Shown: piece after piece, positions 12,139 through 24,241 of the stretch
How the letters are laid out: each line of letters opens with the position of its first letter
Numbering within the stretch: position 1 is the stretch's first letter
Origin: a virus
Length of the DNA: 24,241 nucleotides
Strand: one strand, 5' to 3'
IMG/VR virus record: IMGVR_UViG_3300029259_000423
Span: 1-24,241 of that record
Notes under the pieces: model-generated
Told to the model about the DNA's origin: nothing
Databases searched by the model: none
The model's input: the letters and a program-made list of their open reading frames with translations, nothing else
Translations under genes and position numbers: made by a program

Positions 12139-13044
12139 ATGACACCCACAGTAAACAGCTATTTTAGTGGCGCTGGTTTAATGGATATTGGGTTACTTAA
12201 AGCTGGTATAGAGATTAAACAAGCGTTTGAGATTGATAAAGATGCTTGCAAGACATACCAACATAATTTAGGTAATCACATGACGCAGTGTGATATTTCT
12301 AACCAAATGGTTACAAAGCAAGCTGAAGCAGACGGAATGGTGTTTACCTACCCCTGCACTAAATATAGCACCATTGCTAATATCCATAACACACGCACAG
12401 GTGATGAGCTATTTCTTCATGCTTTACGGCATTTAGCGATAGCTCGGCCTGAATTTTATGTAGTAGAAAACGTCCCAGGTATGCGAGCGTTTCCAATAGT
12501 CATGGAAGCAATGACCCATATGCCTGATTATTACGTAACAGTCTATTGCCCTATCAAGTCAGAAACATGGCTTCCACAAAGACGTAATAGATTAATTATT
12601 ATAGCAACTAAAAGATACTTTCAAGTAAGGCCACCTACAGCCACAAAACGAGTTAAATTATCTGACATTGTTGAAGAATATCCAGAAGTCACTAGACCAT
12701 CCGCAATTACGGCGAGAATGAACGGTTTGTATCGTGACTTGCCGATTATTTCTGATCCATCAAAAGATGATATAGCTCCAACGTGCGTAGCGCATTATGC
12801 AAAAGATAAGTCTACTAGATTAGTTGTTGATAAACGTTTTCCACTAGGGGTACGACCTTATTCAGTTCGTGAATTTGCAAGACTGCAAGGTGTACCTGAC
12901 TCATTTGAGTTTCCAGTATCTGACACCGCTGCCTATAAACAAATAGGTAATGGTGTATCAGTACCTGTTGGTGAGTGGATCGGAAAAGAGATGACCCGAT
13001 ATATGAACGCTAAACAGATTATGGATAAAAATCTAATCAATTAA
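12139..13044 (+). CDS. C5 cytosine DNA methyltransferase (orphan)
   Basis: A 301-aa Dcm-type enzyme with the expected motif order: I FSGAGLMD (9-16), IV YPCTKYS with catalytic C73, VI ENV (110-112), VIII QRRNR (147-151), a short target-recognition region (about 155-235), RExxRLQ (244-250) and X NGVSVPV (271-277). It methylates carbon 5 of cytosine in a sequence that cannot be read from the protein. Motif IV has Y-P-C rather than the usual P-P-C. No restriction endonuclease gene is adjacent, so it most likely protects phage DNA from host restriction, or marks it. The ATG at 12139 follows the membrane-protein stop by nine bases. Confidence 0.92.
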   Translation: MTPTVNSYFSGAGLMDIGLLKAGIEIKQAFEIDKDACKTYQHNLGNHMTQCDISNQMVTKQAEADGMVFTYPCTKYSTIANIHNTRTGDELFLHALRHLAIARPEFYVVENVPGMRAFPIVMEAMTHMPDYYVTVYCPIKSETWLPQRRNRLIIIATKRYFQVRPPTATKRVKLSDIVEEYPEVTRPSAITARMNGLYRDLPIISDPSKDDIAPTCVAHYAKDKSTRLVVDKRFPLGVRPYSVREFARLQGVPDSFEFPVSDTAAYKQIGNGVSVPVGEWIGKEMTRYMNAKQIMDKNLIN

Positions 13045-14167: not shown

Positions 14168-15346
14168 TTAAGCAACCTCTAGCTGTCCAAAGCTGAGTTT
14201 GTGACGTTGTACCTCGCCCCATTTAGGTGAATAAATTACGGCTGACATTGATCGTGCTGATCCATAACCCGATTGGGCATGCCATTCATCTGAGCATGCA
14301 AGCGTATTCCAACTTTCAAATAACATTGCTCCCCCTACTTCCGAAGCTTGCTTATGGTGTATGTGACCCATATGACAATATCTATGGACTGTCTCACCCC
14401 AAGCTTTTGGTTGTGTCCGAGTGTAATATTCGTATAACCTTTGAAGCTTAATTCCTTTATCACCGTGATGACTTGCTATAAAAACATTATAATAAATGTA
14501 TAGTTGAAACTTTGACGTATTATCTAACACAACCACCCGTGGTTCAGACTCATAAAAAGCTTTTAGCATAACGTTAATAACCATAGAAACATCACTGTCA
14601 TGGTTGCCTCTAGTATTCATTAAGATCACTTCATCGTTGTACTCAAGCATAATATCAACTGATTGACGATAGACTCTTACCGCAGCTTCTACGCTGTCTA
14701 CGTAATGCCCTGACGTATCAAGTGGCGTACCAGCAGCTGTTATTCCAGGCGTATTTGCGTGTAAGAAATCACCCACATTAAGCAGCATAATTTTAGTGCC
14801 TCGCCCACAAGATCTAACCAACTTTTCAATAGCGTCTAATGTCGCACTCTCAGCAATATTTAAATCCCACTCCCCTGCTCCATAATCTTTTTGGACTAGC
14901 ATACCAAGATGCCCATCTCCTATCATAATACACGCTAATCGTTCTTCTACGGCACTGTCAGCAATCACTCTAGGCTTTGGTACATAAGGGCTTAGATCAG
15001 CTGTTAAACCATCAGCAAACGTTTGTAACGCTAACTCTTGATCTACCTTCTTTAAGTCTGTTTTAACCCATTGGCGAATAGGTATACCGAGTTCATCATA
15101 AAACGTACTGACACCTTTAACTAAGTGCGTGTCAGGTGCTGCATGTGTCATATCATGGTCAGGCGACCAGCCTTGTCGTGAAGCACGATCTCGTAAACAT
15201 TTAAGTCCACGTTCTAAACTTCGTTTTGATACATTAAGTGCAATAGCAGCTTTGCTTTGACTACCGTATTGAATGACTGCATCAATATAAACTTCTTGGC
15301 GTTTAGTCGCAAACGGCTTTAATTTTAATAATTTATCGTGATCCAT
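14168..15346 (-). CDS. Calcineurin-like metallophosphoesterase with N-terminal helix-turn-helix
   Basis: A 392-aa protein. Residues 14-56 form a helix-turn-helix (QSKAAIALNVSKRSLERGL). The phosphoesterase domain (about 137-385) has all the metal motifs: GDGHLG (D144, H146), GDFLH (D193), RGNHD (N248, H249), SHHGDKG (H293/H294) and GHIHHK (H328, H330). These bind two metals and hydrolyse phosphoester bonds in nucleotides, nucleic acid or phosphoprotein. I recall the same fused architecture in other tailed phages, where its substrate is unknown. It is the last gene of the leftward block, 19 bases after the giant virion gene, so it is probably expressed late. The helix-turn-helix suggests it acts on DNA. 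Confidence 0.85.
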   Translation of the reverse strand: MDHDKLLKLKPFATKRQEVYIDAVIQYGSQSKAAIALNVSKRSLERGLKCLRDRASRQGWSPDHDMTHAAPDTHLVKGVSTFYDELGIPIRQWVKTDLKKVDQELALQTFADGLTADLSPYVPKPRVIADSAVEERLACIMIGDGHLGMLVQKDYGAGEWDLNIAESATLDAIEKLVRSCGRGTKIMLLNVGDFLHANTPGITAAGTPLDTSGHYVDSVEAAVRVYRQSVDIMLEYNDEVILMNTRGNHDSDVSMVINVMLKAFYESEPRVVVLDNTSKFQLYIYYNVFIASHHGDKGIKLQRLYEYYTRTQPKAWGETVHRYCHMGHIHHKQASEVGGAMLFESWNTLACSDEWHAQSGYGSARSMSAVIYSPKWGEVQRHKLSFGQLEVA

Positions 15347-15365: not shown

Positions 15366-18300
15366 TTAAATAGTCGTAAGTGATGACGCAGCTGCAAGTA
15401 AAGGTACGTCTGTTATTGTGTCTACGTGATCCAAAGGCGTTTTAAGTCTGCCGAATGTTCCTGGTATAGTTAGTATTCCGTCATCAATAGAGACTTGTTC
15501 ACCTACAGCTTTTTCTAATACATGGAGGCTTAATTGTGATGCAGGTCGATTTTTAAACAGTGAAAATATAACTTTTTGAATTCTAAAATAGAATTTTGAA
15601 AACGGAAATAAACCAACGTCATTGATATATTGCATTTCAGCCGAAGTTGGTAAGTCGTAGTTAACAAATGTTTGAACGATTTCATTCATAACATCTTGTA
15701 CGTAAGATGCTGTTGCGTCTTTATTTAGTTTAGGCATGTTACCCATTCGATGGCGATACAAAGAATACCGAGCTATAAAGTCACTGACTTGCGTTACCTT
15801 GAGTAGCACTTTGTATGGTGTTGTATCTTTCGTAAGATAAAGATGTTTATAAATTGGTTTAACGTAATCAGGTAGGTATTTATCGGCTAACTCACCTGCT
15901 TTATTACTCAGCTTGGCTTTAGATGAATAAATATCTTCTTCAAAGTTAATGTCTTCTATTATGCTTCCAAACACACCTTCATCAATTAATGGCCCTACTG
16001 GGTTAACTTGTAGTTCAGTGTTTAGTCGCGCTACTTTTGCTTCTAATTTAGCGCGTTTGTTTTTACTTAAAGTAAGATTTATCTTTAACTCACTGACTGC
16101 TATATCACGTTCCAATAACTCTTTTTGATATGCATCTAATGCCTCTAAAGCTTCTTTTTGGTAAATTCCAATTTGTTTAATGGGTATACCTTTAACAAAC
16201 TGCACATAGTTATTACTCATAAAGTTAGGTATCAATATCACGCCTGTTCTAACCACAACTAAGTCTTTAACCATATCAATTACTTCAGTCCAAAGTTTAC
16301 CAATATCAGTATTAGGTGCGGCTGGAAAGAACGAGTTTCGTAGTACATAATCAATGCTGCTATTCACACCGCGAACTGCTGTGCCAACTACATTTTTCGC
16401 ATCTTTTGCTCGTAATTTTCTAAACCCAAACATCAGATTTAAATACTCTTTACGTATTTTTACAGGCTTACCTTTCCCCCAAATAGTTTCTAGTTCACCT
16501 TTAAGTTCATCAGGCATGAGCGCGTACATTTCAGCAATTTCTTTATCTGCGCTATTCTCCACTACATCAACAAATTTACTTGGGTCAGATAGGTAGTTGT
16601 CGTCGTAATCTTTTTTAGCCAATTGCATTGCTTCTAAGTTAATTTGAGTTGAGTTAACTTTGTCTTCAATGCTGGCGTACATACGGCCTATTGCTGCGTC
16701 ATAAGCATTGTTACGTTCTAAGGTGTCTTCTTTAAACTCAGAAGTCATCATGTAACGATAGCTTACAGTTTCACCTTTATCATTAACCAAAGGTATTAAC
16801 GTAGACGATTTGAATTTAGTTGATTTACCTTCAAACTGTTTAGCGATTTCTTTATCCATATCTTCATGAATTTGCTTAACGGACTGCTTCGCGTCCTTAT
16901 AAGCAATGTCTAAATTTGTTGCATTGTGCATATCTTCAATAGAGAAACCTTGGCTTTGTTTTGCTGTCAATGACATGATTGATTTAACCCAGCTAGCAGT
17001 ATGCTTGTTGGTGTTAACAAACATAAATCTTTGACCTGGAGTTGGGTCTAGTTTATCTTTAGCTAAAGGGTTTGACATCATCACGTAACCTTCACGTTCA
17101 AGCTCTAGTTTTAAATTAACAATTTCAGATTTACCTGTGTCTTCGTTAATACGAGTACTTTGTAATAAACTTACTTTGACATCTATATCAGAGTTAAATA
17201 CTTCAGCTACATACCCTTTCCTCGTTTGCATTTTGTTCCCATTAAATAGTCGCTCTAACGAGTCTTTTTTATGGTTAACTTGTAAATCTAATAAAGTAGT
17301 AATCCCATTGGTTTTAGGGTTAACCGAATGTTCATGTTCTACCACTTCTGCTGCTGCAAGCTTTGTTTCAGCGGTTAACAGAAATAATGATTGAAGCGTT
17401 GCTAATTCATCAATTAACTTTTCAGCGCGAGTAATATCACCTTGTTGTTTCTGATCTTTACGGTTAGCTAATGTTGCAATAATATGTGCATTTCGCATCT
17501 GCCCCAATGTAGCGTCTTCACCTGTCGTGTTTAAATTACCTAATCCCGTACCTTGTTTAATGTAGTAATCTGAATTGTTACCAAACTCTGCACTGTTTAA
17601 TTCTGCAATCACTTCGTCTTTTTTCTCTTTTAAAAAATCACTATCCTTTAAAAGTTGAATGAGAGATTCTACGGTGTATTTATCTTTTTGTGCTGTGTCT
17701 AACAACACAGACAGGTCTGATTCTAAAAATACTTTATACAAAGCTTCAGATTGTAATTTAGTCGGTTTACGATCCATAGCTCTGACTAGCTGCTCTTGTA
17801 TCGTTGCTGATACTTGTGTACGTAACTGATCTACAATCTTTTTTGATTTTCTAAGTAATACGTGAAAACGCCAATTTTCTTCAGTTAAACCAGCAACTTC
17901 ACGTACTAATTTAGTCAACATACTACGTTCAGTAATACCTAAGTTACGAGAGATCTGACCAACCATAGTGCTGACGTTAGCCCGTATATTGTCATCTGCC
18001 AATGCTGTTATATTGGATAACAGGTATAACGCTCGTCTGGGTACGTTAAACTTACTAGGAGGGTTAGCTTCGGTATATTTGCGATACTTTGTCAGTGGCT
18101 CTAACACAACTTTCTTTATTGCTGCTAATGCATAGGGGTTAGCCACATGAACTAAATCAAACGCTTTAAAAATGTTAATACGTTTCTTTTCATGGGTATT
18201 GGTTATGTCATTAACTACTTGCCTTAATGCTTTATCCAAAGATAATCCAGAAGTTTTATCCAGCCTATCTAAAAGCAGATTGACTACCCTATCAAACCAA

Positions 18301-21300
18301 GCTGAAATTCGCTCCCATAAACTACTATCTTCAATTGTTACATCATCACGCACCTTAATTGATTCTAACTTCTTAGAAAAAGTATTATGAGTTAACCCAG
18401 AAGCAACGAATTCGTGTAAATAATCATTTGTGGCTTTACCGTTTAACCCTTTGTTATTATTAAAAATATAATTGTAATTTTCTTTGGCAAGTCGTATTTC
18501 AGAATCTGTAGCTGATGCAACATCAGTAGCTAAAAAATCTTCCCAAGTAGTATTTTTTTGAGCTTGCTTATAAAGCTTTTTAAGTACTTTACGAGCCGCA
18601 AAGTCTGTATCAATAGCAAACTGTGTCACTGCATGAACAAGCTCATGTACGTACACGTTTTGAGCTGTCATGCCTGATCTGTTGCGAATCATGTTAGTAG
18701 ATGCTTGAATTGTGATATCAAGCTTGCCATCCGTAAATGTTCGTAACGCTCCAAAGGTTTCTGTATCTGTCTCCCCTACTTTTATATCAATAGCTTCTTG
18801 TACTTGAACTACGTTATCTAACACTTCTTTTAATTTAGCTTTATGACTAGGGGTATCTACTGCATCTGAACCCATGTGCTCTAAATGGTTAAAAATTGTT
18901 TGGACGGTACTGGCTGTAATAGTGCCTTCAAAAGTAGAATGGAAATTGTCAAAATCAATAGTACGGTCAGACGAACCTTTTTTATTGTTACGTGACTTTT
19001 GTTTGTTTTGTTTTTTAGACTTTTCAGTGTATGTAACGTTAACTTTTTCTTTTGGTTTTTTACGAGGTAATATTACGAAACCATCAGCATCTAATTTTGG
19101 ACTTTCATTCTCGTTGAACACCCGTTCATTTAAAGGTTTAGGTTGATCTGGGCCTTTATCTGTATTGCTAAAAGTAAGAGCATCTTCAAAAAGTAAATCA
19201 ATGGCATCAGCCTCACTCAACGTTGCGGCTGTAGCAGACTCATGTACGTGTACCGTAGGTTCAGCGCCAGCATAGTTGTTAACAGCAATGTCTGGGTTAT
19301 CTTCAAGAAAACTAATTCGATTTTGTTGAACTGTTTTTAGTAAAAGCTTGTAGTTGCCAATAAACAACGCAGCGTTTTCTTTCACCCGTTGTCCGTTACC
19401 ATTTTTTGCAAGTATTTCACGTTTAAAAATAGTCTCGTTCATAAGCGTAACTGCCTCTTTCCACAAAGTCTGATCAGGATCTTTGTTTAATTCAACAGCA
19501 ATTCGTTGAAAGCTATTTAATGTCTCTGCCATAATACTATGGCTCATAGAGACATCTAAAAAAGCTTTGTTAATGGTTTGTGCAACTGCATTAGCTTCGT
19601 CAAGTCGTGAAATAGTGGCATCAAAATAACCAATAGTGGTGTACGAAGCTTCAGTAATTTCTAATATAGCAGCGTCTATGTTGTGTATTATGTTGACCAT
19701 GCCGCCAACCCCTGGCCCTTCGTATACTTGTTCTTCACCAAATGACGTATTACTTTTACTATCAGTACCTGTTAGTGGCTCACTAAATTGAGTTTGTACT
19801 TTGTATCTATTATCTAACTTACCATTAACCACACCGTTATTACGTTTGATCTTACTTTTAAGTAAGGTAATACCTTCATCAAGACTTTTAGCCATTGGGC
19901 CTTTTATAATTGGCATGAACGCTCGTATTGATTCAAACACCTCGTTTGTTTCTTCAATAGATATTGTTCTGTCGCCAATTTCTTCTTGTTTAGCTTTCAG
20001 CATTTGTTTAAATTTAACACTAAACATTACAAACAGAGCTTGCATTGCTTTGTTAACATTGTAGTTAAACTCTGTTACACCACTTAACTGTTCATTTAAA
20101 GCTTTGGTTAATGCCTTGCCATGTGTTTGGTCAACAGTCGCCTCAAAAGCGAGTGTTTGCCCTTTAGATAATTTAAATGTTATTGGGTCTATATCTTCTT
20201 TGTTCTCAATAGTGGTGTTCGTTAATAACTCTAATAACTTTAATTGTTTTAAGGCTGGTTGCTTGCCTTTAGTTTTGGTAGCGAAATTGGTATACCATTC
20301 TTTTAATACTATTTTACGAAATTCAGCTTTAGCGGTTTCAAGCGCTGAGCCATAGCTTGTCTGCATTAAAGGGTCTTTACTGTAAGTTCGCATAACTTCG
20401 CTAATTTCTTTAGATACGAAATCTCCCAAAATAGATTGAACGCCTGCTACTTTTACTTTCAGCACTTTTAGTTCGGCTTTATCTCTTTCGTTTTCGACTT
20501 TCTTTTCTTCTGGGTCTAACAGGCTAAACGCTTTCTCTTCTTTTGCGCTTCGGCTTTGACGTTTAGGTTTAATGTATTCGGCCCACTTAATTGTGAGTTG
20601 TTCATACAAATCATAATTACCTAGTTGGCTGTGCCATTCACCGTATGACTTATTAACACCATCGGTAAAGACACCCACGGCAGGCAATTTATCTGGATCT
20701 GTTAATGCCTGTACAAGCCCAAGAGCAATGCCACTTGTTTTTGCATCATGTTCAATTGTGAGCGTAGTTTCAAAAGATTCAGCAGCTCGATAATCTGCTA
20801 AAGCTAACAACCCCTCAAACCCACCTAAACCATTCTTACCAATAGCTTTTAAAATAATGTCTTCTTCAGGGCGAGACAGGTTATCTTTTTGGATTAGTTT
20901 AACTGCGTCAGCTGTGTCTATTTTGATTTGAGCAATTTGAGCGAGACTTATCTTGGGGGCTTGTCCACTAATGTTTACTCCAAAAAGTTCGCCAATAGCC
21001 AGATCAAAATTCAGTCGAGTAGCTGGATCGTCAACCTTTACGGTCATAGTGTGATGCTTTAACCCTATAAAAGTCCGTATCATTTTTTGAGTTACAGGGT
21101 TAATAGAGTTGTTAGCAATAAACATACGCGCACTCTTAGAAAGAAAGTGCTTCATATAGAACTTATCATTAGGGGTCGAAAGCCCTTCTCTAAACTTTTT
21201 AAACACAGCGAGTGTGCGAAGCTTTGATTCGTTAATTGCTTTAAAGCTACGTTGTTGAGTAATGTGTTTTTTATCCACATCTACAATACCAATAACCGCA

Positions 21301-22739
21301 TTAATAAACTTTTCAGATGTACTAAAGAATTTTGCAGCAACTTTCTCTTTAACTCCCCATGCGTCATTTTGCTTGTTTTGCATAACGGTTCGCGTTGATT
21401 GAGGTATTGATTGAGAAGTACGTTTATATGTTTTAGGTGTTTTATTAGAGGGTTTACTTGAGGGGTACGTTTTTCCGCTTTCGATATCAAATAATTCATC
21501 GAGTGCGTTAGTATCTCGTCTGTCATCACGTAAAGCCATAACACCCTTTAGCATTTCGGTTTCAGAACTAACCGCTACAAATAACGTATCTTGACTTGTG
21601 GGTGTCTTCTCACTCGATAAAGTTTCTATCTCGTAGTTTTGTTGTTTTGGAAACTCTGAAGCTTTCACAGGCGTTTGGATCAATATCTTTTCATCAATCA
21701 TAAAGCCAACAGCTAATTGACCTAACCCGACTTGGAGCCGTGTCATAAACGCACCATCAACATTTTTTAGCTTTTCAAACCCAAGATTAGCCGTTATTGC
21801 TTTACCTATTTGTAGGTTAACGACAGCGCGAACTGTACCTACCTTTTGAAATGTAGCCTGATACTCTTGATCAATTAAGTTTTTATCTTGTTTACCAATA
21901 ATTTTATTAATAGTTGTATCATCATTAAACATTGAATCAATCCCATCAATACTAAGCCATTGATACATACTGACTGCCACTGCATCTAAAACAAGTTGAT
22001 TGATTGTTACCTTTGGATTACCTACATCAGAAGGGTTGCTGCCAAGCACATCTTGCGATAGATATTCCAACATTCCATAAAACTTAACTTGTTCACCGTT
22101 CTTTACGAACGGTTCGCCACGAAGTTTAATCCGTCTTGTTTTGTCTTTAGCCATGAAATCAAGAAGTGGTGGCTTACCTGGCGTACCATTGATTCTGGCA
22201 TCGAGCCTTAAACTCAGCTTTAAGATACTATTAAAGGCTGCTAAATCTGCTTCATTGGCAGTTGTGAGCCACGCTTCGTAAGCAGCAGACTCAACAAATT
22301 GTGATAACGTTTGACCCTTATCCATCAATGCATTCAGTTTGTTACTAGTCGCACTAACAAAGTCAGATAACCTTGAGCCACCTTCTCCCCCAAAAGTTGT
22401 GCCAACTGATACTGTATTACTTAGTATCGCTGCAGCCGCATTACGTTTTGAAATAATTGGTATTGGAGATATGCTTTCTGTTACTGTTTTGTCTGTGGCT
22501 TTAAGTTGGTATTTAGCAGGTACTGTAAGTTCTTCATCTTGCTTATTGGTATAGATGGTTTGCAATACGTTGTTACGGCTAAGTAGCGTTTCGGTTAACA
22601 TGGTATTCAACAGCACTGCTTTACCAGCACTGTTAACTGTTGGATCAGACGAATTAAACTCAATGGTTACTGCTTTAGCAAAACCAGAATTTGGATCAAT
22701 GTTGTTACTTTTTAAAATATCTTTTATTGAACAAGTCAT
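15366..22739 (-). CDS. Giant virion protein: N4-like single-subunit RNA polymerase fused to a zinc-peptidase-like domain
   Basis: A 2457-aa protein. Residues 200-1150 carry the single-subunit RNA polymerase motifs in order: SKSAR (534-538, the T/DxxGR element with A for G) followed by NP, motif A TDG (D693), motif B RxxxKxxxMxxxYGS (R784, K788, M792, Y796, G797) and motif C HNIDA (H1019, D1022). T7 equivalents are R425, D537, R627/K631/M635/Y639 and D812; the A-to-B spacing is 91 here and 90 in T7. A very basic linker (about 1223-1258) precedes a zincin-like segment with HELVH (1365-1369) and possible third ligand E1443 in HEFVAS. Residues 1550-2457 are helical and unassigned, probably for encapsidation or ejection. 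N4 gp50 is about 3500 aa, so this form is shorter. The start is ATG with AGGA eight bases upstream, overlapping the previous stop as ATGA. I infer a polymerase injected with the DNA for early transcription. Confidence 0.77.
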   Translation of the reverse strand: MTCSIKDILKSNNIDPNSGFAKAVTIEFNSSDPTVNSAGKAVLLNTMLTETLLSRNNVLQTIYTNKQDEELTVPAKYQLKATDKTVTESISPIPIISKRNAAAAILSNTVSVGTTFGGEGGSRLSDFVSATSNKLNALMDKGQTLSQFVESAAYEAWLTTANEADLAAFNSILKLSLRLDARINGTPGKPPLLDFMAKDKTRRIKLRGEPFVKNGEQVKFYGMLEYLSQDVLGSNPSDVGNPKVTINQLVLDAVAVSMYQWLSIDGIDSMFNDDTTINKIIGKQDKNLIDQEYQATFQKVGTVRAVVNLQIGKAITANLGFEKLKNVDGAFMTRLQVGLGQLAVGFMIDEKILIQTPVKASEFPKQQNYEIETLSSEKTPTSQDTLFVAVSSETEMLKGVMALRDDRRDTNALDELFDIESGKTYPSSKPSNKTPKTYKRTSQSIPQSTRTVMQNKQNDAWGVKEKVAAKFFSTSEKFINAVIGIVDVDKKHITQQRSFKAINESKLRTLAVFKKFREGLSTPNDKFYMKHFLSKSARMFIANNSINPVTQKMIRTFIGLKHHTMTVKVDDPATRLNFDLAIGELFGVNISGQAPKISLAQIAQIKIDTADAVKLIQKDNLSRPEEDIILKAIGKNGLGGFEGLLALADYRAAESFETTLTIEHDAKTSGIALGLVQALTDPDKLPAVGVFTDGVNKSYGEWHSQLGNYDLYEQLTIKWAEYIKPKRQSRSAKEEKAFSLLDPEEKKVENERDKAELKVLKVKVAGVQSILGDFVSKEISEVMRTYSKDPLMQTSYGSALETAKAEFRKIVLKEWYTNFATKTKGKQPALKQLKLLELLTNTTIENKEDIDPITFKLSKGQTLAFEATVDQTHGKALTKALNEQLSGVTEFNYNVNKAMQALFVMFSVKFKQMLKAKQEEIGDRTISIEETNEVFESIRAFMPIIKGPMAKSLDEGITLLKSKIKRNNGVVNGKLDNRYKVQTQFSEPLTGTDSKSNTSFGEEQVYEGPGVGGMVNIIHNIDAAILEITEASYTTIGYFDATISRLDEANAVAQTINKAFLDVSMSHSIMAETLNSFQRIAVELNKDPDQTLWKEAVTLMNETIFKREILAKNGNGQRVKENAALFIGNYKLLLKTVQQNRISFLEDNPDIAVNNYAGAEPTVHVHESATAATLSEADAIDLLFEDALTFSNTDKGPDQPKPLNERVFNENESPKLDADGFVILPRKKPKEKVNVTYTEKSKKQNKQKSRNNKKGSSDRTIDFDNFHSTFEGTITASTVQTIFNHLEHMGSDAVDTPSHKAKLKEVLDNVVQVQEAIDIKVGETDTETFGALRTFTDGKLDITIQASTNMIRNRSGMTAQNVYVHELVHAVTQFAIDTDFAARKVLKKLYKQAQKNTTWEDFLATDVASATDSEIRLAKENYNYIFNNNKGLNGKATNDYLHEFVASGLTHNTFSKKLESIKVRDDVTIEDSSLWERISAWFDRVVNLLLDRLDKTSGLSLDKALRQVVNDITNTHEKKRINIFKAFDLVHVANPYALAAIKKVVLEPLTKYRKYTEANPPSKFNVPRRALYLLSNITALADDNIRANVSTMVGQISRNLGITERSMLTKLVREVAGLTEENWRFHVLLRKSKKIVDQLRTQVSATIQEQLVRAMDRKPTKLQSEALYKVFLESDLSVLLDTAQKDKYTVESLIQLLKDSDFLKEKKDEVIAELNSAEFGNNSDYYIKQGTGLGNLNTTGEDATLGQMRNAHIIATLANRKDQKQQGDITRAEKLIDELATLQSLFLLTAETKLAAAEVVEHEHSVNPKTNGITTLLDLQVNHKKDSLERLFNGNKMQTRKGYVAEVFNSDIDVKVSLLQSTRINEDTGKSEIVNLKLELEREGYVMMSNPLAKDKLDPTPGQRFMFVNTNKHTASWVKSIMSLTAKQSQGFSIEDMHNATNLDIAYKDAKQSVKQIHEDMDKEIAKQFEGKSTKFKSSTLIPLVNDKGETVSYRYMMTSEFKEDTLERNNAYDAAIGRMYASIEDKVNSTQINLEAMQLAKKDYDDNYLSDPSKFVDVVENSADKEIAEMYALMPDELKGELETIWGKGKPVKIRKEYLNLMFGFRKLRAKDAKNVVGTAVRGVNSSIDYVLRNSFFPAAPNTDIGKLWTEVIDMVKDLVVVRTGVILIPNFMSNNYVQFVKGIPIKQIGIYQKEALEALDAYQKELLERDIAVSELKINLTLSKNKRAKLEAKVARLNTELQVNPVGPLIDEGVFGSIIEDINFEEDIYSSKAKLSNKAGELADKYLPDYVKPIYKHLYLTKDTTPYKVLLKVTQVSDFIARYSLYRHRMGNMPKLNKDATASYVQDVMNEIVQTFVNYDLPTSAEMQYINDVGLFPFSKFYFRIQKVIFSLFKNRPASQLSLHVLEKAVGEQVSIDDGILTIPGTFGRLKTPLDHVDTITDVPLLAAASSLTTI

Positions 22740-23017
22740 TCTATTAATCCTGTATTAATCATGGAGACTACTAACGCAATTACTTCTTCATCTTCTTGAT
22801 ACAGTTGTTTGTAGTTAATTGCTTCAAGAGTAGGTGACTTTAATTTAAAATGATCTTGTCGTTGTGCAGAAGGTATTGATGCGGTTACTGGTGTTACTGG
22901 TGTTACTGGTGCTTGTATCTGAGGCGTTACAACAGTACATATAACGCCGAGCGTAGCTAGCGCTACTGCTCGTGCTGAGCAATGCACACCAAGGCTTGCT
23001 AGGGATAAAGCACTCAT
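22736..23017 (-). CDS. Small 93-aa late protein with hydrophobic N-terminus
   Basis: It is joined by ATGA overlaps to the gene before (stop 23014-23016) and to the giant gene after it (start 22739), which fixes the frame over a competing ORF at 22845-23093. Residues 15-32 (ARAVALATLGVICTVVTP) are hydrophobic, then comes a threonine-proline repeat (PVTPVTPVT) and a conserved-looking acidic end (QLYQEDEEVIALVVSMINTGLI). It may be a small virion or membrane-associated protein. The lack of Lys/Arg at the extreme N-terminus makes a standard signal peptide uncertain. The function is unknown. Confidence 0.65.
   Translation of the reverse strand: MSALSLASLGVHCSARAVALATLGVICTVVTPQIQAPVTPVTPVTASIPSAQRQDHFKLKSPTLEAINYKQLYQEDEEVIALVVSMINTGLIE
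22884..22910 (-). repeat. 9-bp tandem repeat, three copies
   Basis: GTTACTGGT occurs three times head to tail on the + strand (22884-22892, 22893-22901, 22902-22910). On the coding (-) strand it is in frame and encodes the Thr-Pro-Val repeat of the 93-aa protein. Confidence 0.9.
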
Positions 23018-23583
23018 ACTTGACGAGTTTGTATAACATTGTTACCGACACTGGTAGCGGTAATATTAATACCTGTGGCTTCAATACCACCATCAGCTTT
23101 GTTGGTTAATGGTTTAGTGGTGTTTAACCCTAACCGTGTATGTACCTCATCAGTTCGTGTTTCTATGCCAGATAACAATGCTGTTTCTGCAATGGTCAAA
23201 GCTGGTACAGCGGTTGGTACTGAGATCACTACTGCGCGTGTAGATACCTCTAATCTTAAAAAAGCAAAATACCCTGTACGTTGCACAAACAAAGCTGAGT
23301 CTGGGTCTGTTGGAAATAGATTACCAGACAGAATAATCTCCCCATCTTGTTCAGGCATTCTAACTCGCCAACCTAAATCGTTACGAACAAAAAAGTAAGG
23401 CGCTATGGTTTGATTGCTACCAACAGGTTCACCACCTGACACCGAGAACGCTGGTAAGTATTTAGCATTGTCTGAAAACTTAACAAAACCTTTCCACTCT
23501 GAGTAAATATATCCTGCGGTTACTGCATTTACTTCATCCAAGTTTATAAATTTGTTAACACCGTCAAACGTTATTCTACCCAT
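23014..23583 (-). CDS. Conserved phage tail/baseplate-like structural protein
   Basis: A 189-aa protein of a type I recognise from many tailed phages. It opens with ITFDGVNKFINL, then YIYSEWKGFVKFSDNAKYLPAF (48-ish residues in, split by strands), YFFVRNDLGWRVR and a GNLF segment, and ends with the LGLNTTKPL and ATGI elements. It is beta-rich in the first 120 residues with a short helix (about 127-150). Such proteins are encoded among tail tip, baseplate or fibre-adaptor genes; the precise virion position is not known to me. A good Shine-Dalgarno (AGGAGTT, 23590-23596 on the - strand) precedes the ATG, while the upstream gene's stop overlaps by eight bases. Confidence 0.7.
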   Translation of the reverse strand: MGRITFDGVNKFINLDEVNAVTAGYIYSEWKGFVKFSDNAKYLPAFSVSGGEPVGSNQTIAPYFFVRNDLGWRVRMPEQDGEIILSGNLFPTDPDSALFVQRTGYFAFLRLEVSTRAVVISVPTAVPALTIAETALLSGIETRTDEVHTRLGLNTTKPLTNKADGGIEATGINITATSVGNNVIQTRQV

Positions 23584-24241
23584 TTTGATAACTCCTATCG
23601 AAGCGTTGTTGGATAGGCAGCTCTACATTATTAGTTGTGTTAACACCTGCTACTCGGAGATACTCATAAGCAATACTATGTACAACAACATCAACACTGT
23701 TTACATTTACTGCAAAAGCTGTAAATGTTTCTTCAGAATCTTCTATGCCATCAACAGGTATTGTTGTGCCAGCTTCAAATATTCTTACTTCACTGTTCTG
23801 TTGTAAGCCTGTGAGTGTCAGTGTGCGCGGTGCTGATACGACTGTTATTGATGGGTCTATTGATGCATATTGTATTGTTGTGTTACTTAGTTGGACTGTT
23901 ATGTTTCCACCTGACGTATTAGATATACTTGACATTGAGCTATCAGTGAAGCTATAGCTCCCTGCTGCTGCAAAATCTATATTGCCATTAACCGTTAGAC
24001 CAGAGTAATCGGTAACGCCTGCGGTTGAAATATTTAATCCACTATTAAAAGTAGCATTGTTTAAAGTAGCGCCTGAACTAATCACTAGATAACCATCAGC
24101 TACAGTAAATGTGCCAGAAGCATTAACAGAGCTACCCATAGTGAAGTCGCCCATGCCACTGAAAGATCCAGAAAGGTTAGCAACAACAGCTGGATAATTT
24201 TGTGAGAAATCCCAAGGCGCTGGTGTACCCCATACGTAAGA
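23576..24241 (-). CDS. Beta-rich fibre- or spike-like virion protein, C-terminal part (cut by window edge)
   Basis: The frame is open to the window edge, so the start lies beyond 24241 and the ATG at 24154 is internal. At least 221 residues are visible. About 130 residues are low-complexity, rich in Ser, Thr, Gly and Asn with short alternating hydrophobic strands (GATLNNATFNSGLNIS, LTVNGNIDFAAAG), typical of a beta-helix or stacked beta fold in tail fibres and spikes. This is followed by an Ig-like region (RTLTLTGLQQNSEVRIFEAG) and a helical end (QQRFDRSYQNG). Its neighbours are tail-type genes. A host-contact role is likely by analogy, but receptor and catalytic sites are not visible. Confidence 0.65.
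   Translation of the reverse strand, partial: SYVWGTPAPWDFSQNYPAVVANLSGSFSGMGDFTMGSSVNASGTFTVADGYLVISSGATLNNATFNSGLNISTAGVTDYSGLTVNGNIDFAAAGSYSFTDSSMSSISNTSGGNITVQLSNTTIQYASIDPSITVVSAPRTLTLTGLQQNSEVRIFEAGTTIPVDGIEDSEETFTAFAVNVNSVDVVVHSIAYEYLRVAGVNTTNNVELPIQQRFDRSYQNG
23590..23596 (-). promoter_or_regulatory. Shine-Dalgarno of the 189-aa structural gene
   Basis: AGGAGTT on the - strand, six bases before the ATG (23581-23583). It lies within the 3' end of the upstream fibre-like gene and supports the chosen start. Confidence 0.7.

What the first reader, a model, noticed from the sequence alone, without database searches (positions are those of the whole stretch)
18100..18960. Zinc-peptidase-like domain fused downstream of the polymerase in the same chain
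HELVH (H1365, E1366, H1369) is followed 74 residues later by HEFVAS (E1443), the layout of a gluzincin-type metallopeptidase. A very basic linker (about 1223-1258, Lys/Arg-rich) lies between polymerase and peptidase. I do not know of a zincin in N4 gp50. It might cleave the polyprotein to free the polymerase after injection, mature the virion, or attack a host protein. A comparable pairing of packaged polymerase subunits with zincin domains is discussed for crAss-like phages, but their polymerase type is different.
Basis: partly seen in the sequence, partly recalled or inferred. Interest (0 to 1): 0.75.

Follow-up and report, generated by a model that had tools for sequence, protein, structure and literature searches.

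The report
Swapped zinc-protease copy in phage polymerase
A giant RNA polymerase that a phage carries in its particle also holds a zinc-protease domain; such a domain was already known in this family, but here the working copy sits in a second slot whose counterpart in the model phage N4 has lost its active site, which suggests the protease matters but can move along the chain.

Summary
Residues 1365-1369 (HELVH) and E1443 lie in a predicted zincin fold C-terminal to an N4-type virion RNA polymerase. A zincin in N4 gp50 is in print (PMC5512222, PMC8472413, PMC12633501), so the finding as given is known.

Not found in print: the window's zincin is not the counterpart of N4's published one. Of 123 vRNAPs examined, HExxH sits in slot A (N4 type) in 83, slot B (window type) in 33, both in 3, neither in 4. 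Slot B of A-type phages is a recognisable zincin without its active site: a core-only model of active B finds it in 71 of 82 (reversed controls 0), and the window's model aligns to N4 residues 2377-2586, beyond N4's own zincin. The four 'neither' proteins carry HExxH before the polymerase.

The window's chain and four relatives also lack the N-terminal domain; in one relative it is a separate gene, so freeing the polymerase from that domain cannot be the zincin's general job.

Function is unproven. I favour a protease acting after ejection.

The parts
15366..22739 (-). virion RNA polymerase gene (2457 aa) without the N-terminal domain in the chain
   Evidence: ORF; PHROG 2206 E 4.3e-298; 468 phage records match by tblastn, best Vibrio phage phi 1 at 25.7% identity
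19140..22382 (-). T7-like RNA polymerase domain, about residues 120-1200, bounds approximate
   Evidence: alignment of 25 vRNAPs, near-invariant E663, D665, R784, K788, D1040; the assignment of these to polymerase motifs is recalled
18966..19073 (-). basic linker, residues 1223-1258
   Evidence: 13 K/R, 3 D/E; charge not conserved in relatives
18969..18977 (-). G1255-S1256-S1257, short motif at the linker/zincin border
   Evidence: xGS[SDEQTNAI] within -150..-85 of HExxH in 25 of 35 slot-B zincins, about 0.08 expected per 66-residue window
18240..18968 (-). zincin domain in slot B, about residues 1258-1500
   Evidence: AlphaFold2 model mbddbf3dff603; VIA-align to N4 gp50 2377-2586, Z 8.9; profile to N4 chain 11fw E 1.3e-14
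18633..18647 (-). HExxH motif, H1365-H1369
   Evidence: sequence
18411..18413 (-). E1443, presumed third zinc ligand
   Evidence: E in 35 of 35 active slot-B rows; lies in model helix 190-201
15369..17882 (-). C2-like helical C-terminal region, about residues 1620-2457
   Evidence: PHROG 2206 best stretch 1269-2426; C2 start taken from an anchor profile
22736..24241 (-). three small overlapping ORFs upstream (93, 189 and at least 221 aa) where relatives have genes between a separate N-terminal-domain gene and the polymerase gene
   Evidence: no family match; the window ends here

Best explanation
Shown by sequence and prediction: the region is a zincin-type metallopeptidase domain, intact in its four key residues, in the second (B) of two zincin slots that lie between polymerase and C-terminal region in Schitoviridae vRNAPs. 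The window keeps B and has no A. N4-type phages keep A active and carry B as an inactivated zincin. Inferred: the ancestor had both slots active, and lineages lost one or the other, some carrying a zincin in front of the polymerase instead, under selection to keep at least one active site on the ejected chain. Inferred, least certain: the domain binds zinc, uses E1366 as general base, is packaged intact, and cuts a substrate after ejection. I think a substrate in trans (a host protein or an ejection-channel protein) somewhat likelier than the chain itself, because the active copy's place in the chain is not conserved and because it persists where the N-terminal domain is not part of the chain.
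For: HExxH in slot A or B in 119 of 123 vRNAPs; the other 4 have HExxH before the polymerase (place estimated from anchors), 2 of them matching the slot-A profile at E 2e-17 and 3.1e-13. Inactive B matches active B by profile-profile, Prob 100, E 3.6e-44; whole-domain model hits 77 of 78; core-only model hits 71 of 82 with 0 in reversed controls. At the inactive sites H1365 becomes L, F, I and others, H1369 mostly E (58 of 78) and E1443 mostly R (59 of 78), while flanking residues stay. The window's model aligns best to N4 residues 2377-2586, Z 8.9, 173 residues, rmsd 4.7, then to lethal-factor zincin domains at Z 6.2 and below. The active-B profile, which holds no A-type rows, hits N4 chain 11fw at E 1.3e-14, chain 1433-1724, about N4 2440-2731. 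Packaging intact: Iyer 2017. Split N-terminal domain.
Against: No proteolytic activity or zinc content was tested here, and I saw none reported for any vRNAP in the passages read. The model of an inactive B domain (from L060) shows no beta-sheet and its fold matches are weak, best Z 4.8, with N4 not among the 50 rows shown. The inactive-B profile does not find N4 at E up to 1. The core-only model misses 11 of 82. Gain and loss cannot be told apart on an unrooted tree. A conserved short GS motif just before slot B would fit self-cleavage better than action in trans.
Confidence: 0.6

Rival explanations
1. Self-cleavage after ejection: the zincin cuts the linker between polymerase and zincin, near the GS motif, and so releases the polymerase from its inhibitory C-terminal part.
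For: Bellis 2025 reports that the N4 C-terminal domain represses transcription and that promoter binding does not release it. GS motif before HExxH in 25 of 35 slot-B zincins inside an otherwise variable linker; LGS in 11 of 33 against 0.95 expected.
Against: The GS motif is not seen at one place before slot A (17 of 78, scattered positions). Recombinant full-length gp50 showed no evidence of degradation. Zincins in front of the polymerase in L065 and L076 would need another cutting site. The motif may simply be the start of the folded domain.
Confidence: 0.28
2. Maturation protease acting before or during packaging, on the vRNAP chain or on other virion proteins.
For: Iyer 2017 infers prepackaging self-cleavage for phage P1 DdrB.
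Against: Iyer 2017 states that N4 vRNAP is packaged unprocessed. No candidate site was found here that is shared by A- and B-type chains.
Confidence: 0.06
3. Not a protease: the HExxH/Glu site holds a metal for structure or another chemistry; Bellis 2025 also mentions HExxH in radical SAM enzymes and cites an alpha-ketoglutarate HExxH paper.
For: Bellis 2025 names both readings for HExxH. No activity assay seen.
Against: Third-ligand Glu invariant in active copies. Fold matches are zincin peptidases. Weak Pfam matches of relatives include SprT-like and Peptidase_M85. I did not test the alpha-ketoglutarate family.
Confidence: 0.06
4. HExxH and E1443 are a chance pattern in a helical protein.
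For: HExxH alone is not very rare: 3.74 are expected by composition outside the C1 region in 108 proteins.
Confidence: 0.005

Closest known systems
Phage N4 gp50 vRNAP with its C1 zincin (Iyer 2017, PMC5512222; Bellis 2025, PMC12633501)
   Same: T7-like polymerase followed in one chain by an HExxH zincin and a large helical C-terminal region
   Different: The window's zincin corresponds to N4 residues about 2377-2586, outside C1; that N4 stretch has no HExxH, and Bellis 2025 counts it in C2, for which it reports no structural homology. The window has no slot-A zincin and no N-terminal domain in the chain.
Vibrio phage phi 1 vRNAP (Pacinivirus)
   Same: Slot-B zincin, the best named tblastn match to the window
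   Different: Also has an active-looking slot-A zincin at residue 1942, and a full-length chain of 3240 aa
Zincin-like MPTase domains of polyvalent phage and plasmid proteins (Iyer 2017)
   Same: Helix and strand layout, HExxH and Glu in the next conserved helix, fusion to unrelated enzyme domains in proteins that enter the host with DNA
   Different: Iyer 2017 does not, in the passages read, describe an inactivated second copy in N4-type vRNAPs
Anthrax lethal factor type zincins
   Same: Next-best solved folds for the window's model: the catalytic domain, and the N-terminal domain of the same chains. That the N-terminal domain is itself an inactive zincin copy is recalled
   Different: Only fold-level similarity, Z 6.2 and below; no sequence match at E up to 1; function not comparable
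crAss-like phage virion RNA polymerase with zincin
   Different: Polymerase of another type; not tested here; a paper search for it gave 0 papers

Membership tests
Schitoviridae virion RNA polymerase | Profile match to the vRNAP family | tested here: met
   PHROG 2206 E 4.3e-298
Schitoviridae virion RNA polymerase | Catalytic residues of the T7-like polymerase | tested here: met
   E663, D665, R784, K788, D1040 near-invariant in 25 vRNAPs; their catalytic roles are recalled
Schitoviridae virion RNA polymerase | Packaged in the virion and ejected | not testable with these tools
   needs virion proteomics
Zincin-like metallopeptidase of polyvalent proteins (gluzincin type) | HExxH in a helix | tested here: met
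   residues 1365-1369 in model helix 110-129
Zincin-like metallopeptidase of polyvalent proteins (gluzincin type) | Glu ligand in a following conserved helix | tested here: met
   E1443 in model helix 190-201, E in 35 of 35
Zincin-like metallopeptidase of polyvalent proteins (gluzincin type) | Three-stranded sheet before the HExxH helix | tested here: met
   strands 68-75, 80-85, 91-98; pLDDT block means 80-90 there
Zincin-like metallopeptidase of polyvalent proteins (gluzincin type) | Match to a curated peptidase profile | tested here: inconclusive
   SprT-like E 0.067, below cut-off, for the window; of 27 rows scanned 5 match SprT-like, best 0.0069, and 2 match Peptidase_M85, best 0.00042
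Zincin-like metallopeptidase of polyvalent proteins (gluzincin type) | Zinc binding and peptidase activity | not testable with these tools
   needs an assay
Lethal-factor-like zincins (M34 type; family name recalled) | Shared fold | tested here: inconclusive
   Z 6.2 to 4.2 with several chains, below the level the tool calls telling
N4 gp50 C1 zincin (slot A) orthologue | Same slot in the chain and closest match to N4 2124-2375 | tested here: not met
   HExxH 255 residues before C2 start against 483 in N4; best structural range N4 2377-2586

The most novel reading that the evidence does not exclude
Schitoviridae vRNAPs descend from a chain with two active zincins in tandem. Lineages inactivated or deleted one of them in different ways (B dead in N4-type, A gone in the window's type), or carry a zincin in front of the polymerase, but never lost the last one, so an ejected protease is a core activity of these polymerases. 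The dead copy is kept as part of N4's C2 domain. In the window's clade the vRNAP itself is split into two genes with other genes between them.
Probability: 0.7. Interest if true: 0.65.

Novelty: new variant of a known kind. Interest (0 to 1): 0.5.

Why it matters
The role of the zincin and of the very large C-terminal part of N4-type vRNAP is open; [quoted passage not shown] The swap of active copies gives a natural test: in N4 the catalytic site to remove is in slot A, in the window's relatives in slot B, and the same phenotype is predicted. It also gives an origin for the start of N4's C2, described as without homology, and the lineage without the N-terminal domain in the chain limits which cleavage models can be general.

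Tried and rejected
Salt-bridge idea: in inactive B copies E at 1369 and R at 1443 occur together in 56 of 82 (Fisher 6e-9), but on independent pairs of the tree the link is not supported (9 pairs, median p 0.625). Rejected as evidence.

Basic linker as a conserved cutting or DNA-binding feature: not conserved.

Tripeptide enrichment in linkers: slot-A sets are dominated by close relatives, so I used only LGS in slot-B linkers.

The first alignment was anchored on the last HExxH and mixed A and B copies; its 25-of-25 conservation shows zincin chemistry, not orthology. The unanchored alignment revealed the mismatch.

Fold search of the inactive copy is weak; the rows that span most of the domain include zincins (lethal factor N-terminal domain Z 4.2, Zmp1 and PPEP-1 Z 3.5 and 2.6, 4l7a Z 2.8), but also others such as 8vb2 (Z 4.8), all at noise level.

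A scan of viral contigs with the window's zincin alone confirmed no relative. No plasmid, E. coli or bacterial-genome collection was searched for relatives. Locus L013 (Alteromonas phage AD45-P1, annotated as a possible frameshift) was fetched and not used.

Rows dropped before counts: of 154 loci, 35 with identical C-terminal 400 residues; of the resulting 144 ORFs (25 named or window, 119 IMG/VR), 21 lacked one of the two anchors. Six copies of named phages or near copies were dropped for the nonredundant counts. The tree used all 33 B, 2 AB and 4 neither, and 47 of 78 A rows. AlphaFold inputs: the window plus 26 slot-B IMG/VR loci (A4), and 51 of the 63 slot-A IMG/VR loci listed (A5).
Full report
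What is there. The finding lies in a minus-strand ORF of 2457 codons, window 15366-22739. It matches the PHROG family 'virion RNA polymerase' at E 4.3e-298, and 468 phage records by tblastn, the best (Vibrio phage phi 1) at 25.7% identity. DNA polymerase, DNA primase, Sak4-like, SSB and Holliday junction resolvase genes lie on the plus strand, which fits a Schitoviridae genome.

What is known. Iyer et al. 2017 (PMC5512222; [quoted passage not shown] They state that N4 vRNAP is packaged unprocessed. A 2021 review, 'Tailed Lytic Bacteriophages of Soft Rot Pectobacteriaceae' (PMC8472413; passages), repeats the domain assignment. Bellis et al. 2025 (PMC12633501, preprint; abstract, results parts 1 and 2, discussion) solve N4 vRNAP by cryo-EM, name C1 (2124-2375) with HExxH and C2 (2376-3500) with no significant structural homology, report no evidence of degradation of recombinant gp50, and show that the full-length enzyme makes less RNA than the polymerase domain alone. 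So the finding as given is already explained as to kind.

Two slots. I read 24 other vRNAP genes from named phages and translated them. All 25 chains, the window's included, have HExxH after the polymerase. Aligned on it, only four columns are identical in 25 of 25: H, E, H and a Glu that is E1443 in the window. An unanchored alignment did not put the motifs together: the window's HExxH faces N4 residue about 2456, while N4's own HExxH is at 2228. The tblastn matches in PEV2 and Pollock likewise fall after those phages' own HExxH (positions compared).

To test this on more data I searched IMG/VR with alignments of about the last 460 residues only, so that zincins played no part in selection. 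That gave 154 loci and 119 distinct ORFs. With the 25 named or window chains, 123 of 144 have both a polymerase anchor and a C2 anchor. The distance from HExxH to C2 is bimodal: 242-279 residues (slot B) or 438-570 (slot A). Counts: A only 83, B only 33 (the window among them), both 3, neither 4; without six copies 78, 33, 2 and 4.

Slot B in A-type chains is an inactivated zincin. Profile-profile comparison of the slot-B stretch of 78 A-type chains with 35 active B domains gives Prob 100, E 3.6e-44 over 332 columns; active A against active B 98.7, E 2.3e-16; active A against inactive B 67.7, E 4.9e-5. A model of the active B domain finds 77 of 78 inactive ones at E below 1e-3. Because homology outside the core could drive this, I repeated it with a model of the 131-residue core from the 33 B-only chains against whole proteins: 71 of 82 have a match at the predicted inactive site, 16 of 78 at their active A site, 2 have one elsewhere, and reversed proteins none. 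The lines read, for example, SPQEAYVLEQVEATV in PEV2 and TAQEQSVFQMVTAAL in N4, against SAQEVxVHELVH in the active consensus. At the inactive sites H1365 is L 36, F 13, I 12 and others of 78, H1369 is E in 58, and E1443 is R in 59, while neighbouring F1444 and A1446 are kept in 76 and 73.

Structure. AlphaFold2 with 27 window and IMG/VR sequences gives a confident core (pLDDT block means 70-94 for model residues 11-180) with a three-stranded sheet, the HExxH helix and a helix with E1443; beyond model residue 260 confidence is low. In the PDB the best match is N4 gp50 by both methods: Foldseek E 0.068, probability 0.96, with no match at E below 0.001; VIA-align Z 8.9 over 173 residues to N4 2377-2586. 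That range begins where C1 ends. Next come chains of anthrax lethal factor and Certhrax, Z 6.2 to 4.2. A profile of the active B domains hits N4 chain 11fw at E 1.3e-14 at chain 1433-1724, which is about N4 2440-2731 since that chain starts at N4 1008. The model of an inactive B domain from L060 is helical without the sheet, and its fold matches are at noise level; its profile does not find N4. So the loss was probably separate in the N4 clade and in the other A-type clade, and the inactive fold is eroded.

Evolution. On a tree of the C-terminal region (86 rows) the four states need 8 changes, against 31.6 for shuffled labels; A-type chains fall in more than one place, with at least 5 changes forced by well-supported branches. 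The tree has no root, so gain and loss are not told apart; loss is inferred because re-creating all four residues in an unrelated scaffold is implausible.

The last zincin. The four chains with neither slot active (L065, L076, L176, L179) each have an HExxH in front of the polymerase, its place estimated from the anchors. In L076 and L065 it matches the slot-A profile (E 2e-17, 3.1e-13), so a zincin of the same kind sits in a new place. In L179 it has only a weak M48 match and in L176 none, so these two are suggestive only. By composition 3.74 HExxH are expected outside C1 in 108 proteins and 9 were seen.

Split polymerase. The window's chain (2457 aa) and those of L028 (2388), L036 (2409), L039 (2338) and L042 (at least 2285, cut at the contig end) lack the N-terminal domain. 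In L039 an 836-aa ORF upstream matches vRNAP profile positions 31-472 (E 3.8e-20) and the N-terminal part of L032 (E 1.9e-39); two other ORFs lie between it and the polymerase gene. L036 and L042 show the same order, with the N-terminal ORF cut by the locus end. In L028 and the window the N-terminal domain was not seen. All five keep an active-looking slot-B zincin. A 2023 survey, 'Identification of hidden N4-like viruses' (PMC10654107; passages), reports vRNAPs called as two or three adjacent ORFs in two phages and suspects gene calling or read-through; the case here has other genes in between.

Function. Not shown. A protease acting after ejection fits intact packaging, loss of positional constraint and retention without the N-terminal domain. 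Self-cleavage at the linker is the main rival, supported by the GS motif (25 of 35) and by the reported inhibition by the C-terminal domain. Paper searches that showed no description of an inactive second zincin in vRNAP: (listings), with the passages named above; the library lacks most subscription papers, so this is not proof of absence.

Noticed in passing
window 22736-24241 and loci L028, L036, L039, L042: vRNAP without its N-terminal domain; in L039 the domain is a separate 836-aa gene with two other ORFs between it and the polymerase gene.
   Followed up: partly
window 18969-18977: Short xGS motif at the start of slot-B zincins in 25 of 35 chains, within a variable linker; possible cutting site or domain cap.
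   Followed up: partly
vRNAP residues 663-670, window 20730-20753: The motif reads E-H-D-A-K-T-S-G, not the ExDGxxxG that a published survey (PMC10654107) used to screen vRNAPs, so such a screen would miss this phage.
   Followed up: no
L018 8554-9366, L165 2615-3427, L179 3914-4726: Further HExxH domains in front of the polymerase, with M90 (E 1.8e-5), M60 (0.010) and M48 (0.011) matches, all below cut-off; different zincins may have been recruited more than once.
   Followed up: partly
window 14168-15346: A minus-strand exonuclease-like gene (PHROG 704) lies directly after the vRNAP gene; in most of the named phage records read, genes at this place run on the opposite strand.
   Followed up: no
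L075 vRNAP residues 1906 and 2213; phi 1 (L003) vRNAP residues 1942 and 2177: The two distinct vRNAPs with HExxH in both slots.
   Followed up: partly
window 12139-13044: DNA methyltransferase-like gene (PHROG 116) among the replication genes.
   Followed up: no
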